A stretch of DNA of 64,000 bases, from NCBI GenBank assembly GCA_024518585.1, contig JANIHI010000002.1:62001-126000 (forward strand), in the 5' to 3' direction. This stretch comes from Methanolinea sp. Its GTDB lineage: Archaea; Halobacteriota; Methanomicrobia; Methanomicrobiales; Methanospirillaceae. The position numbers and the translations under genes were made by a program. The notes under the pieces are model-generated. The model was not told where the DNA came from. It saw nothing but the letters and a program-made list of their open reading frames with translations, and searched no databases. Shown one piece after another: positions 4,256 through 13,083 of the stretch. The number at the start of each line of letters is the position of its first letter. Positions within the stretch are counted from its first letter, which is position 1.

Positions 4256-4270
4256 CGTTAATATAAAGGA
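4256..4270 (+). promoter_or_regulatory. TATA element of the encapsulin operon
   Basis: The sequence CGTTAATATAAAGG is the best archaeal TATA match in the 172 bases after ribL. It predicts a transcript start near 4285-4290 and a leader of about 35-40 bases before the cargo gene. A GC-rich stretch precedes it, so the encapsulin genes probably have their own promoter rather than depending on ribL read-through. Confidence 0.55.
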
Positions 4271-4325
4271 ACGAAACAAGGCATACTTTGGGTTTTTCAG
4301 CCCGCCATTGGGAAGTGTGACGAGT

Positions 4326-4697
4326 ATGCCAGAATTTGGGACAGCGTTCTCCGGGAAGAAGAGTGACCGGATCCTGACACCGGCCGAGCTGGTCCGTGCC
4401 ATCCGGCTGATGGTCGCTGCCGAGTACGAGGCAGTCCAGATGTATACCCAGCTTGCAGAGTCCATCGACAACGATCTTGCACGGGAAGTCCTCCTCGACA
4501 TTGCCGACGAGGAACGCGTGCACGCCGGTGAATTTTTGCGGCTGCTCCAGGAACTCGTTCCGGACGAGCCTGACTTCTATGCCCAGGGGGCAGCAGAAGT
4601 GGAAGCAGAGATCGCAAAGCGTGCACAGCCGAAGGGAGCCAGCATGCCGGAAGAGAAGAAAGAGAATCCCCTGACGATCGGGTCGCTGAAGGGGTGA
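4326..4697 (+). CDS. Encapsulated ferritin-like cargo protein (EncFtn type)
   Basis: A 123-residue helical protein placed directly before the encapsulin shell gene. The core MVAAEYEAVQMYTQLAES and DIADEERVHAGEFLRLL supplies the Glu and E-x-x-H residues of the half-ferritin ferroxidase site, which forms only when two subunits pair. The last residues, LTIGSLKG, match the encapsulin targeting peptide consensus (L-T-x-G-S-L), joined through an acidic, Lys-rich linker. Expected role: oxidise Fe(II) and deliver it to the shell lumen. ATG was chosen over a TTG 18 bases upstream. Its stop overlaps an alternative GTG start of the shell gene. Confidence 0.9.
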   Translation: MPEFGTAFSGKKSDRILTPAELVRAIRLMVAAEYEAVQMYTQLAESIDNDLAREVLLDIADEERVHAGEFLRLLQELVPDEPDFYAQGAAEVEAEIAKRAQPKGASMPEEKKENPLTIGSLKG

Positions 4698-4705
4698 TAA
4701 AAGAC

Positions 4706-5503
4706 ATGTCCAGCCAGTACCTGGGGCGCAGCGATGCCCCTATCAGTGCAAAGACCTGGTCCCTGCTTGACCGGGCAATGGTCGATTCAGCAAAAAGCGT
4801 CCTTGCAGGGCGAAGACTCCTCGAGATCGAGGGACCCTACGGCCTTGGCCTCAAGGCAGTTCCGCTCGAGGACTGCCGCGTGAGCGAGTGCCTTGCCGTG
4901 AGCCAGTTCGTCCCCGTTCACATGATCTATACCCGCTTCTCGCTCGGGTTGCGGGATATCGTCTCCTATGAACAGAACGGGCTCCCCTTCTCGGCAGCCC
5001 CCGCTGCCCAGGCCGCGATCGAGTGCGCCCGGCAGGAAGATGCCCTCGTCTTCGAGGGTGCGGCCGGGGTTACAGGTCTGACGACGCACGAGGCGACGGG
5101 GACACTCGCCCTTTCCTCGTGGAACACCGTGGGGAAGGCTGCGGATGACATCATCCAGGCGATGATCATCCTCGACGAGGCAGGGTACCATGGGCCCTAT
5201 GCCCTCGCGCTGGCCCCTTCGCGGTACAACCTCCTCTTCCGGAGGTATCTCCAGGGCCAGAGCACCGAACTTGAACACATCCAGACCATCGTGACGGACG
5301 GCGTCTACAAGGCGCCTGTCCTCAAGAGTGGGGGTGTACTGCTCGCAACCGGGAAACGGTATGGATCGATCGTTCTCGGCCAGGACATGACGGTGGGGTA
5401 CGTCGGGCCCGCGGGGGACAGCCTCGAGTTCTCGGTCACAGAGAGCCTTGCGCTCCTGATCCGGGAACCTGCATCCATCTGCGTTCTCCGGGACAAGAAG
5501 TAA
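4706..5503 (+). CDS. Encapsulin shell protein (family 1, Linocin-M18 type)
   Basis: A 265-residue HK97-fold shell protein that self-assembles into an icosahedral protein compartment. Family hallmarks are the N-terminal LGRSDAPISAKTWSLLDRAM, the GRRLLEIEGPYG segment, EDALVFEG, GPYALALAPSRYN and the C-terminal ILGQDMTVGYVGP, in the order seen in the Thermotoga protein. The ATG is preceded at ideal distance by GGGGTGAT, a near-perfect Shine-Dalgarno that spans the stop codon of the cargo gene; the GTG inside that site is the less likely start. Unlike the Pyrococcus protein, the ferritin domain is not fused to the shell. Confidence 0.95.
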   Translation: MSSQYLGRSDAPISAKTWSLLDRAMVDSAKSVLAGRRLLEIEGPYGLGLKAVPLEDCRVSECLAVSQFVPVHMIYTRFSLGLRDIVSYEQNGLPFSAAPAAQAAIECARQEDALVFEGAAGVTGLTTHEATGTLALSSWNTVGKAADDIIQAMIILDEAGYHGPYALALAPSRYNLLFRRYLQGQSTELEHIQTIVTDGVYKAPVLKSGGVLLATGKRYGSIVLGQDMTVGYVGPAGDSLEFSVTESLALLIREPASICVLRDKK

Positions 5504-5518: not shown

Positions 5519-5538
5519 TTTTTTTTTTTTTTTTTTTT
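5519..5538 (+). terminator. 20-T tract after the encapsulin gene
   Basis: An uninterrupted run of 20 thymines follows the encapsulin stop and ends exactly at the stop codon of the convergent helicase gene. Oligo-T tracts terminate archaeal RNA polymerase. For the opposite strand the same run gives oligo-A, so it would act mainly on rightward transcription. Confidence 0.75.
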
Positions 5539-7802
5539 CACCCGTTATCCAGGACAAGGGAGAGCAGCTGGTGAGCCGCTTCCTTGTCGAGGGGCTGGTT
5601 GTCGCTCCCGCACTTGGGGGAGAGGATGCAGGACGGGCACCCCCGGTCGCATCCGCAGTCTGCAACGAGGGCCCGGGCAGTCGAAAGAAGGGTCTCACAG
5701 ATCTCGTACCCCTTCTCGGCAAGGCCGATCCCCCCCTCGTACCCGTCGTAAACAAAGACAGTGGGTTGCCCGGACTCGCCGCCGCAGGGGGTCGAGAGTC
5801 CTCCGATATCCCAGCGGTCACACAGCACGTGGAAAGGCATGACGGCAATGAGGGCATGTTCCATCCCGTGGAGACCGCCGGCAAGGTCGCGCCCCGACAG
5901 GGAGACGGCATCGCAGGGCCCGGGGGCTACCTCGAGCCAGAGACTCCTCGTCGGGAACTGGACGGGGGGGAGGTCGAGGGGCTCGATCCCGATGACACTC
6001 TCCCGCTCGATCATCTTGTAGGCGGTGTACTGCTCTGTCACTTCCACGTCACCGTAATGGAGGCGGGCGCCGGGGAGCTCGCGGCTGGCCCTCACTGCCG
6101 TCACCCTGACAGAGCCCGATTTCAGGGGCCGGGTATAGTAGTCCACGTCAACAGGGGTGACATGAATCGTCCGGGACTCGAGGTCGAAAGACTCCACCCG
6201 GAACTGTTCTCCCTGGTGGAGGAGGATCGCACCCTTGTGGGCTTCCCGGTATGCCTGTGCCCGGTCGAGGGTCTCGAGGACGCGCCCGTTGCACAGGACC
6301 GCAAAGGTCTCGCGAAAACCCCCCTCGAGCGAGACGAGGTCTGCGGCCCGCCGTGTCCCCGCGTATATCCAGCCCCTGCGGGTCCTGCCCAGGAGGGACT
6401 GGGCAGCAAGGGAGGAGACGGTGAGGGGGAGGGTTGGGGGGAAGAGGTCGCGGTCCGCATCGCAGTCGAGGGGCAGCTCGGCTGCCGCACACAGGACCTG
6501 CCCGGAGAGGATGTAAGGGTTTTCAAGGTCGATGATGGCATGCTCCAGGGGGGCCCCGAAGAAGGCGTCCGGGTGGTGCATGAAGTACTGGTCGAGGGGA
6601 TTCGGGGACGCAACGAGGATTGCAAGTGCATCCCGTGCGTTCCGGCCGGCACGCCCAACCTGCTGCCAGGCTGCCATCATCGTCCCGGGAAAGCCCGAGA
6701 GTACCACGGCATCGAGGGTCCCGACGTCGATCCCGAGCTCGAGCGCGTTCGTGGAGACAACGCCCCGGAGCGTGCCCGACTTGAGACCCTCCTCAATTGC
6801 CCTGCGCTCCTCCGGCAGGTACCCCGCCCGGTAGGAGGCAACCATCCCCTCCAGGGCGGGCCGGAAGACGTCTGCAACCTCCTCCCTGGTCCAGGAGGCA
6901 ACCAGTTCCGCTGTCCTTCGCGACCCGGAAAAACAGAGGGTCTGGAGACCGGCTTCCATGCACCGGGCGACGACCCGGGCAGAGTCGTGGTGCATCGACC
7001 TGCGGGGGGGCCATTCGCGGCATGGGTTGTAGAAGGCGATCGTCCGGGAGCCCCCCGGGGAACCGTCGCGCGAGATCACGCGGAAAGGCACCCCGCAGAG
7101 TTTCCGGGCAAACTCAGCCGGGTTGGCGAGGGTCGCGGAGGAGAGCACGAAACGGGGGGCTGCGCCATAGTTCCTGCACACCCTCCGGAGCCGCCGGAGG
7201 AGCAGCGCGACATGGGAGCCAAAGACACCCCGGTAGCGGTGGGCCTCGTCGACCACGACGGCGCAAAGCCCCCGGAAGAACCTGCTCCACTGGTGGTGCC
7301 AGGAGAGGATGTGGTGGAGCTCGTAACAGTTCGAGAGGATGATCCGTGCCTCCTGTCGTATCCGGCCACGCCTGCTGGTCTCCGTGTCCCCGTCGTAGAC
7401 CGCACTCACCGGTCCCGTCGAGAAACCCCCTTCCAGGGCCCGGAGTGCGACCTCCTGGTCGCGGGTGAGCGCCTTTGTGGGATAGAGGAACAGGAACGTG
7501 GACTCCGGCCGCGTCACAAGCTCCTCATAGACAGGGAGGGCAAATGCCAGGGTCTTTCCGGATGCCGTCGGCGTGGTGAGGATGAAGTTCTCGCCGTCCC
7601 GGAACGCCGAGACTGCCTCGCACTGGTGCGAGTAAAGGTGGATGCCCCGGGAATCGAGGAACCCCTTGATCTGTGGGGGCAGCGGTGGGTCGAGGGATCC
7701 AAAGACAGGATCCCTCGCCGGTATCTCCCGGGCGTAGACCCAGCCTTCCTGGAGCCCGGCGTCGTTTTGGAGGGCATCCAGCGCTTCCCGGATGGGACTC
7801 AT
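5538..7802 (-). CDS. mrfA: MrfA/YprA-like DExH helicase
   Basis: A 754-residue superfamily-2 helicase. Walker A is TTPTASGKT at residues 76-84, motif II is DEAH at 185-188, motif III is SSATLAN and motif VI is QQVGRAGRNARD. The C-terminus has the four-Cys DUF1998 signature DCGCDRGCPSCILSPKCG expected of the MrfA/Hrq1 group. The characterised bacterial relative works with the MrfB exonuclease in repair of mitomycin-type DNA damage, and the exonuclease is the immediately upstream gene here, overlapping as ATGA. Archaeal function is inferred from this conserved pairing. Confidence 0.88.
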   Translation of the reverse strand: MSPIREALDALQNDAGLQEGWVYAREIPARDPVFGSLDPPLPPQIKGFLDSRGIHLYSHQCEAVSAFRDGENFILTTPTASGKTLAFALPVYEELVTRPESTFLFLYPTKALTRDQEVALRALEGGFSTGPVSAVYDGDTETSRRGRIRQEARIILSNCYELHHILSWHHQWSRFFRGLCAVVVDEAHRYRGVFGSHVALLLRRLRRVCRNYGAAPRFVLSSATLANPAEFARKLCGVPFRVISRDGSPGGSRTIAFYNPCREWPPRRSMHHDSARVVARCMEAGLQTLCFSGSRRTAELVASWTREEVADVFRPALEGMVASYRAGYLPEERRAIEEGLKSGTLRGVVSTNALELGIDVGTLDAVVLSGFPGTMMAAWQQVGRAGRNARDALAILVASPNPLDQYFMHHPDAFFGAPLEHAIIDLENPYILSGQVLCAAAELPLDCDADRDLFPPTLPLTVSSLAAQSLLGRTRRGWIYAGTRRAADLVSLEGGFRETFAVLCNGRVLETLDRAQAYREAHKGAILLHQGEQFRVESFDLESRTIHVTPVDVDYYTRPLKSGSVRVTAVRASRELPGARLHYGDVEVTEQYTAYKMIERESVIGIEPLDLPPVQFPTRSLWLEVAPGPCDAVSLSGRDLAGGLHGMEHALIAVMPFHVLCDRWDIGGLSTPCGGESGQPTVFVYDGYEGGIGLAEKGYEICETLLSTARALVADCGCDRGCPSCILSPKCGSDNQPLDKEAAHQLLSLVLDNG

Positions 7803-11251: not shown

Positions 11252-11983
11252 ATGCTCGAGATAGAAGACCTGCATGTGAAGATCGGGGACAGGGAAGTCC
11301 TCCATGACATCGACCTGACCATCAGGGAAGGGGAGACACACGTGCTCATGGGCCCGAACGGGTCGGGAAAGACAACGCTGCTGCGTGCCATCATGGGTTT
11401 TTCCGGCCTTGAGGTGACGAAGGGCACTATCCGGTTCAAGGGAAAGGACATCACGGGCATGCCCATCCACGAGCGGGCAAAGATGGGCATCGGGATGCTC
11501 TTCCAGCGACCCCCGACGGTCTCCGGCCTGAAACTGGGCAAGCTCCTTGCCGTCACGTCCGGGGACAGGGCCGGGATGGTCAGTGAGTATGCACGGTTCC
11601 TCCACATGGACGGGTTTATGGACCGTGCGATCAACCTCGGGTTCTCCGGCGGGGAGATCAAGAGGAGCGAAGTCCTCCAGCTCATGGTCCAGCAGCCGGA
11701 CTTCGTGATGCTGGACGAGCCGGAGAGCGGGGTCGACCTCGAGAACATCACCCTGATTGGAAACGCGATCGCCCGCCTGCTCGAAAAGGACGTCCACATC
11801 GTGAACCGCAAGAAGAGCGGTCTTGTGATCACGCACACGGGCTACATCCTCGATTACCTGGATGCGGACTTCGGCCACGTGATGTGCGATGGTGTCTTCC
11901 GGTGCCACGGGAACCCCCGGGAGATCCTCAAGGTGATCAAGACGTCGGGATACAAGGAGTGCCTGGCATGCCAGAAGATCTAG
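11252..11983 (+). CDS. sufC: Fe-S assembly ATPase SufC
   Basis: ABC ATPase that powers the SufB scaffold during iron-sulfur cluster assembly. The 243-residue protein has Walker A GPNGSGKTT at about residues 34-42, the variant signature GFSGGEIKRSEVLQ and Walker B FVMLDEPESGVD, all characteristic of SufC. GGGAGGAAAGAG precedes the ATG. It is paired only with one SufB/D-type gene, giving the minimal two-gene archaeal SUF system. Fe-S demand from Frh and other methanogenesis enzymes makes this a core gene. Confidence 0.95.
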   Translation: MLEIEDLHVKIGDREVLHDIDLTIREGETHVLMGPNGSGKTTLLRAIMGFSGLEVTKGTIRFKGKDITGMPIHERAKMGIGMLFQRPPTVSGLKLGKLLAVTSGDRAGMVSEYARFLHMDGFMDRAINLGFSGGEIKRSEVLQLMVQQPDFVMLDEPESGVDLENITLIGNAIARLLEKDVHIVNRKKSGLVITHTGYILDYLDADFGHVMCDGVFRCHGNPREILKVIKTSGYKECLACQKI

Positions 11984-13083
11984 GGAAGATGAGCGAACTC
12001 TCGCCCGAAGACAGGGAGAAGTTGACCCTGACGGGCCTTGAAGTGGAGATGAAGAACAGGGAGGGGAGTTTTTTCCAGGTCGACCAGGAGATCAGGCAGT
12101 GGACCTCCCTCAACGAGGGAATCGAGGTCCTCCCCATCCACGAGGCGCTGCGCAAGTACGACTGGCTCTCCGCGTATTCCTGGAACCTGGTCAAAGGGGA
12201 CAAGGACCAGTACACGAAGTACGTCGCTGACCAGCCCGAACCGCGGGGCTTCGTGATCATCGCCCGCAAGGGGAGCAAGACGATATACCCCCTCCAGGCA
12301 TGCCTTTTTTTGGCCCGCAGTCCCGTCCAGCACGTGCATAACATCATCATCGCCGAGGAAGGTGCCGAACTGCACATCATATCGGGCTGCGCCAGTGCCT
12401 CCTATACGAAGACCGGGTCGCACATCGGGGTGACCGAGTTCTACGTGGGCAAGGGAGCCCGCGTCACATCGACGATGATCCACAACTGGGGCGAGGAGAT
12501 CAGTGTCTTTCCCCGGAGCGCTGCCCGCGTGGAGGAGGACGGCGTGTTCATCTCCAACTACGTCTGCATGCAGCCGGTCAGGAAGGTCCAGATGGCCCCC
12601 TTCGTCGAGCTTGCCGGGAGGAACGCGGTAGCCCTGTTCAGCAGCATTGTCGTGTGCACGCCGGGCTCGAACATGGATCTCGGGTCGGTCGCCCGTCTCA
12701 CGGCAGAGGGGTCGAGCGCCGAGCTGGTCACGCGGGCCATCACGACGGGCGGGACCATCATCTCCCGCGGCATGATCGAGGGGGTATCGCGGCACACGAA
12801 GGGGCACATCGAGTGCAGGGGACTCATCCTCCGGGACGGGGTTATCCACGCCATCCCCGAGATCAAGGGCAACGTCGTGGATACCGAGCTCTCCCACGAG
12901 GCTGCCGTTGGAAAGATAGCCCGTGACGAGATCGAGTACCTGATGTCCCGCGGTCTCGATGAGGACGTCGCGACGGCAACGATCATCAGGGGGTTCCTCG
13001 ATGTGAAGATCGCCGGGCTGCCGAACGCGCTGCAGGCCCAGATCGATGCCGCCATCGACGCGGCAGAGAGGAGCGGGTTCTAG
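11968..13083 (+). CDS. sufB: Fe-S assembly scaffold SufB/SufD family protein
   Basis: Beta-helix scaffold partner of SufC. It lacks the long N-terminal region of bacterial SufB. Conserved core residues are visible: IECRGLIL (candidate cluster Cys) and TELSHEAAVGKI with the His-Glu pair seen in SufB. The start at this ATG has AAGGAG eight bases upstream and overlaps sufC by 16 bases; an ATG 21 bases downstream (MSELSPEDR) is the main alternative and has only a crowded AGGGA. Either gives about 365-371 residues. One copy presumably serves both SufB and SufD positions. Confidence 0.9.
   Translation: MPEDLGKMSELSPEDREKLTLTGLEVEMKNREGSFFQVDQEIRQWTSLNEGIEVLPIHEALRKYDWLSAYSWNLVKGDKDQYTKYVADQPEPRGFVIIARKGSKTIYPLQACLFLARSPVQHVHNIIIAEEGAELHIISGCASASYTKTGSHIGVTEFYVGKGARVTSTMIHNWGEEISVFPRSAARVEEDGVFISNYVCMQPVRKVQMAPFVELAGRNAVALFSSIVVCTPGSNMDLGSVARLTAEGSSAELVTRAITTGGTIISRGMIEGVSRHTKGHIECRGLILRDGVIHAIPEIKGNVVDTELSHEAAVGKIARDEIEYLMSRGLDEDVATATIIRGFLDVKIAGLPNALQAQIDAAIDAAERSGF

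What the first reader, a model, noticed from the sequence alone, without database searches (positions are those of the whole stretch)
4256..5503. Encapsulin nanocompartment with ferritin-like cargo in a hydrogenotrophic methanogen
The cargo is a half-ferritin with ferroxidase-type Glu/E-x-x-H residues ending in LTIGSLKG, an encapsulin targeting tail; the shell gene follows with a Shine-Dalgarno embedded in the cargo stop region. A dedicated TATA and a 20-T terminator make it a self-contained unit. Family 1 encapsulins are known in bacteria and some archaea, but an iron store in a strict anaerobe rich in Fe-S enzymes, placed beside FAD synthase and a JAMM protease, deserves attention for iron storage or oxygen-stress survival.
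Basis: partly seen in the sequence, partly recalled or inferred. Interest (0 to 1): 0.75.

Follow-up and report, generated by a model that had tools for sequence, protein, structure and literature searches.

The report
Methanogen encapsulin with ferritin-like cargo
A methane-making archaeon carries an ordinary two-gene kit for a protein-shelled iron-oxidising compartment, and comparing its relatives shows that the shell and the cargo's address tag are lost together while the ferritin-like enzyme is kept, so the enzyme seems to have a job outside the shell as well.

Summary
Window 4326-4697 encodes a 123-aa half-ferritin of the EncB/EncFtn family ending in LTIGSLKG. Window 4706-5503 encodes a 265-aa Family 1 encapsulin shell (NF041155, 222 bits; PF04454, E=6e-70). 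The shell's GGTGAT ribosome site overlaps the cargo stop. The genome has mcrA and its named relatives are Methanolinea. This is a new member of a known kind: an Flp-type Family 1 encapsulin, already reported from two archaeal phyla. The FAD-synthase/JAMM neighbourhood is essentially genus-specific and gives no functional clue. A separate cage ferritin is also encoded.

The survey adds one useful thing. All 50 genomes of the order with an intact shell have the tail on the cargo. None of 40 shell-less genomes examined has it, yet they keep the ferritin core. Two lineages show the loss in progress: a shell pseudogene beside a cargo whose stop codon falls just before a decayed tail. A third, in the window's own genus, has a clean shell deletion. 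This argues that the tail serves the shell and that tail-less EncFtn proteins work without one, a point a 2024 review left open. Shell assembly, T number and chemistry are untested.

The parts
4259..4270 (+). TATA-box-like promoter element (TTAATATAAAGG) of the cargo-shell unit
   Evidence: 58 sequence; element present at the same place in close relatives
4326..4697 (+). cargo: 123-aa EncB/EncFtn-type ferritin-like protein, three helices (19-46, 50-77, 82-100), ferroxidase residues E33, Y40, E63, H66
   Evidence: NF058679 99.5 bits (cut-off 90); PF02915; PDB 5n5e/2e0z/7s8t; AF2 pLDDT 77; Foldseek best 5n5e, 7s8t, 7s5k (E above 0.001, probability 1.00)
4671..4694 (+). C-terminal targeting peptide LTIGSLKG of the cargo
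   Evidence: fits published consensus L-x-V/I-x-x-L (PMC11202242); conserved in 50 of 50 genomes with an intact shell, absent in 40 shell-less genomes; single match in own genome
4693..4698 (+). Shine-Dalgarno GGTGAT of the shell gene, overlapping the cargo stop codon
   Evidence: 7-nt spacing to ATG 4706
4706..5503 (+). Family 1 encapsulin shell protein, 265 aa
   Evidence: NF041155 222 bits (cut-off 100); PF04454 E 6.3e-70; PDB encapsulins such as Myxococcus EncA E about 1e-40; only copy in the genome
5520..5539 (+). run of 20 T, probable U-tract terminator; length not conserved in relatives

Best explanation
The locus is a two-gene Family 1 encapsulin operon of the Flp (EncFtn) type. Step 1 (inferred from homologues): the cargo forms an annular decamer whose dimer interfaces make a di-iron ferroxidase site. 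Step 2 (strongly supported by comparison): its disordered C-terminal LTIGSLKG tail docks it inside the shell made by the next gene. Step 3 (inferred): the shell, an icosahedral HK97-fold cage, confines the ferric product, giving mobilisable iron storage and removal of Fe(II) plus O2 or peroxide when this strict anaerobe is exposed to oxygen. Step 4 (supported by the survey): shell and tail are a dispensable add-on in Methanomicrobiales; lineages that lose the shell also lose the tail but keep the ferritin-like core, which therefore also has a shell-independent role, most likely Fe(II) oxidation and peroxide or O2 protection.
For: Curated family hits for both genes over cut-off and to solved encapsulins and EncFtn proteins. 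Ferroxidase residues are invariant in the aligned relatives. Every intact shell found next to a relative has a tailed cargo directly upstream. Tail and shell co-occur: 50 genomes with both, 0 of 40 shell-less genomes with a tail. Relics: G019 has a shell pseudogene, a cargo stop before the tail and a TLNSLK relic after the stop. G403 has a shell broken by stops and frameshifts, a cargo stop before the tail and a TIGPMK relic after the stop. G001, same genus, keeps the nucleotidyltransferase-cargo-MrfA order, lacks the shell and has a Lys-rich end in place of the tail. The core stays under purifying selection in shell-less pairs, dN/dS about 0.03-0.11. On the cargo tree tail and shell change together in every independent pair counted.
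Against: No direct evidence of particle formation; AF2 of the shell failed (pLDDT 33). The sign test on independent pairs has too few pairs to reach significance (p=0.25). A cage ferritin in the same genome weakens a need for a second store. O2-dependent ferroxidase activity in a strict anaerobe is only inferred. Some genomes are incomplete MAGs, so single cases of absence are uncertain.
Confidence: 0.9

Rival explanations
1. The compartment is mainly an oxidative-stress device: the di-iron cargo consumes O2 or H2O2, and iron mineral is a by-product rather than a store.
For: Methanogen host (mcrA); a separate cage ferritin can serve storage; Pfam assigns the cargo to Rubrerythrin, many of which reduce peroxide (family knowledge).
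Against: Same ferroxidase residues as EncFtn proteins with shown ferroxidase activity and iron-loaded shells in Myxococcus (PMC11202242); no rubredoxin-like domain in the cargo.
Confidence: 0.35
2. Tail-less proteins are the ancestral state in Methanomicrobiales and the tail plus shell were gained once, by transfer, in the Methanoregulaceae and a second family, rather than being repeatedly lost from an encapsulated ancestor.
For: A single split of tailed from tail-less cargos is not rejected (AU p=0.59); shells of the order group together (support 91).
Against: At least three lineages inside the tailed group show loss (G001, G019, G403), so later losses occurred in any case; the root of the cargo tree is not resolved (one long bacterial outgroup).
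Confidence: 0.5
3. The shell gene is a domesticated or decaying provirus capsid, not an encapsulin.
For: Encapsulins share the HK97 fold; remote HK97 hits elsewhere in the phylum look like virus capsids (L053-L056).
Against: NF041155 equivalog score more than double its cut-off, tailed cargo in operon in all relatives, no viral genes among the conserved neighbours.
Confidence: 0.02

Closest known systems
Flp-type Family 1 encapsulin operons (Rhodospirillum rubrum, Haliangium ochraceum, Myxococcus xanthus EncA/EncB/EncC)
   Same: Half-ferritin with EExxH site and C-terminal LxIGSL-type tail, working with one shell protein (PMC11202242)
   Different: Archaeal host; the stretch between GPxG and the conserved F of the following strand is about 16-18 residues shorter than in Myxococcus EncA (alignment); entry-site motif DxxxEExVH instead of HxxxEExEH
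Archaeal fusion-Flp encapsulins (Pyrococcus furiosus PFC_05175)
   Same: Closest cargo core with a solved structure (5n5e) and the same D in place of the first His of the entry-site motif (PMC11202242)
   Different: Here cargo and shell are two genes joined by a targeting tail, not one fused protein
s-FLP, tail-less EncFtn (Nitrosomonas europaea NE0167, PDB 3k6c)
   Same: Shell-less relatives in Methanomicrobiales have this anatomy: about 100-aa core, no tail
   Different: The review leaves open whether s-FLPs are encapsulated; these occur in genomes where no Family 1 shell was found

Membership tests
Family 1 encapsulin | HK97-fold Linocin_M18 / encap_f1 shell protein | tested here: met
   PF04454 E 6.3e-70, NF041155 222 bits over cut-off 100
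Family 1 encapsulin | dedicated cargo encoded next to the shell with C-terminal targeting peptide L-x-I/V-x-x-L | tested here: met
   LTIGSLKG, 8 nt between genes; tail conserved in relatives with a shell
Family 1 encapsulin | self-assembly into an icosahedral shell with cargo inside | not testable with these tools
   needs expression and EM; AF2 of the shell monomer failed
EncFtn / Flp (EncB family) cargo | curated family model | tested here: met
   NF058679 99.5 bits over cut-off 90; TIGR04535 84 bits, below its stricter cut-off 125
EncFtn / Flp (EncB family) cargo | two long helices plus short further helix, ferroxidase ligands Glu, EExxH and Tyr | tested here: met
   AF2 helices 19-46, 50-77, 82-100; E33, Y40, E63, H66 invariant; Foldseek best hits are EncFtn structures
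EncFtn / Flp (EncB family) cargo | D5 decamer with ferroxidase activity | not testable with these tools
   needs biochemistry

The most novel reading that the evidence does not exclude
In Methanomicrobiales the encapsulated-ferritin core has a selected, shell-free function, and shell plus targeting tail form a detachable module that has been shed several times, with the cargo ending just before its tail; the order thus holds matched natural pairs of encapsulated and free versions of the same ferroxidase.
Probability: 0.6. Interest if true: 0.5.

Novelty: new member of a known kind. Interest (0 to 1): 0.35.

Why it matters
The operon itself is ordinary for Family 1 encapsulins, though in the open-access library I found no paper that describes encapsulins in Methanomicrobiales. 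The comparative set matters more. A 2024 review (PMC11202242) says it is unclear whether tail-less EncFtn proteins are encapsulated. Here dozens of such proteins occur in genomes without a detectable Family 1 shell, with intermediates caught losing both parts, so the question 'what does an EncFtn do without a shell' becomes directly testable with orthologous pairs from one genus.

Tried and rejected
Cargo swap (tail captured by a native tail-less ferritin): the first tree split tailed cargos in two groups, but an AU test does not reject a single split (p=0.59), so dropped. Second cargo elsewhere in the genome: tail pattern found only here. Family 2 shells in shell-less genomes: no hit to PF19307, but no control rang, so inconclusive. 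Shell-like hits elsewhere in the phylum (L053-L056) look like virus capsids and had no ferritin-like neighbour detected. Rfam around the locus: nothing. Shell structure prediction unusable (pLDDT 33). Plasmid search for cargo relatives: none. Length of the E-loop region as a T-number predictor: too indirect to claim.

Full report
What is there. The cargo (window 4326-4697, 123 aa) hits NCBIfam EncB_fam NF058679 with 99.5 bits against a cut-off of 90 and Pfam Rubrerythrin. Its closest solved relatives are the Pyrococcus furiosus and Myxococcus EncC encapsulated ferritins. The shell (4706-5503, 265 aa) hits Pfam Linocin_M18 with E=6e-70, NCBIfam encap_f1 with 222 bits against 100 and solved encapsulins such as Myxococcus EncA with E about 1e-40. 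It is the only such gene in the genome. The shell's GGTGAT overlaps the cargo stop (TGA 4695-4697) and lies 7 nt before the ATG.

Anatomy of the cargo. A predicted model has three helices (19-46, 50-77, 82-100) and a disordered tail from about 102. Foldseek ranks EncFtn structures first (5n5e, 7s8t, 7s5k, 5da5), with probability 1.00 but modest E-values. E33, Y40, E63 and H66 match the ferroxidase positions of Rhodospirillum EncFtn (E32, Y39, E62, H65; residue numbers from family knowledge). The outer entry motif is DxxxEExVH, closer to archaeal fusion proteins (DxxxEExA/TH) than to bacterial ones (HxxxEExEH), following PMC11202242. The tail LTIGSLKG fits the published consensus L-x-V/I-x-x-L.

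Host and context. The genome (1.78 Mb, 96.5% complete) has mcrA, and its nearest named relatives are Methanolinea MAGs, family Methanoregulaceae. The order JAMM, nucleotidyltransferase, cargo, shell, MrfA-like helicase (opposite strand) is kept throughout the genus. Elsewhere only cargo and shell stay together, with the helicase still beside them in some nearby genera and the nucleotidyltransferase at one locus, L017. So the neighbours give no functional clue. The TATA-like element has a counterpart in close relatives; the 20-T run is 4-9 T in relatives. The genome also has a cage ferritin with PF00210 at 161 bits.

Distribution. In the order, 52 of 232 genomes match the shell, all in Methanoregulaceae (f1) and one other family (f3). 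The cargo-family profile, in contrast, matches 199 of 232 genomes, 151 over cut-off. Many of the strong matches outside f1 and f3 stop at profile position 97-104 of 117. I fetched 40 regions and read the ends. The core is kept and the protein ends shortly after the third helix with no tail. Cross-tabulated by genome: 50 with shell and tail, 40 with neither, none with tail and no shell, and one (G019) with a shell match but no tail.

Loss caught in the act. In G019 the shell is a fragment with no start and no second half, while the helicase neighbour is still there. The cargo ends at KKGV-stop, and the reading frame after the stop still spells TTLNSLK-stop, a decayed tail. In G403 (another family) the shell is split by stops and frameshifts, and the cargo ends just before ...ETTIGPMKV-stop. 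In G001, of the window's own genus, JAMM, nucleotidyltransferase, cargo and helicase are in place but the shell is gone, and the cargo ends in a lysine-rich stretch. Four shell-less genomes of genus g6 also lack the tail, three of them with lysine-rich ends, while three other members of that genus keep shell and tail. In shell-less pairs the core shows dN/dS of 0.03-0.11, so it is still selected. On the cargo tree tail and shell always change in the same direction (3 of 3 supported pairs, too few for significance).

Interpretation. Shown: the family membership of both genes, the operon layout, and the strict co-occurrence of tail and shell in the set examined. Inferred: assembly, loading, ferroxidase chemistry, and iron storage or oxygen defence. 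The survey argues that the tail exists for the shell and that the core has work to do without it. The direction of the oldest event (gain in Methanoregulaceae and f3, or loss elsewhere) is open: a single split of tailed from tail-less is not rejected, the root is unresolved, and shells of the order form one group.

Comparison with the literature. [quoted passage not shown] The 2024 review (PMC11202242) calls it unclear whether tail-less s-FLPs carry an undefined binding sequence and could be encapsulated. In the open-access library no paper treats encapsulins of Methanomicrobiales; subscription papers are not covered. Verdict: a new member of a known kind, with a comparative set of moderate interest.

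Caveats. Fetched tail-less genomes were chosen from the match list, not at random, but the shell census was independent. MAG incompleteness can mimic absence. The Family 2 check was inconclusive. The shell model failed.

Noticed in passing
L030, L031, L033, L034, L050, L064, L069, L072, L074, L076, L078, L079, L084 directly downstream of the shell: Relatives of another genus (g5, probably Methanoregula) and G481 carry a third gene behind the shell: about 115 aa, no Pfam or NCBIfam family, usually ending in CGTSC-like cysteines. In the family 24 of 108 genomes have it and 23 of those also match the shell. Possible accessory of the methanogen encapsulin; absent from the window's genome.
   Followed up: partly
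L170 (G001), L082, L085, L087: After loss of shell and tail the ferritin-like protein has a lysine-rich C-terminus in at least two separate lineages.
   Followed up: partly
L053-L056: Weaker encapsulin-model hits in other families of the phylum resemble HK97 virus capsids rather than cargo-linked encapsulins; the Methanosarcina control hit may be of the same sort.
   Followed up: no
window 5520-5539: A run of 20 T follows the shell gene, where relatives have 4-9 T; may be real or an assembly or slippage effect.
   Followed up: partly
window 11252-13083: Two genes that look like SufC and SufB (Fe-S cluster assembly) lie about 6 kb downstream; identified from the translation only.
   Followed up: no
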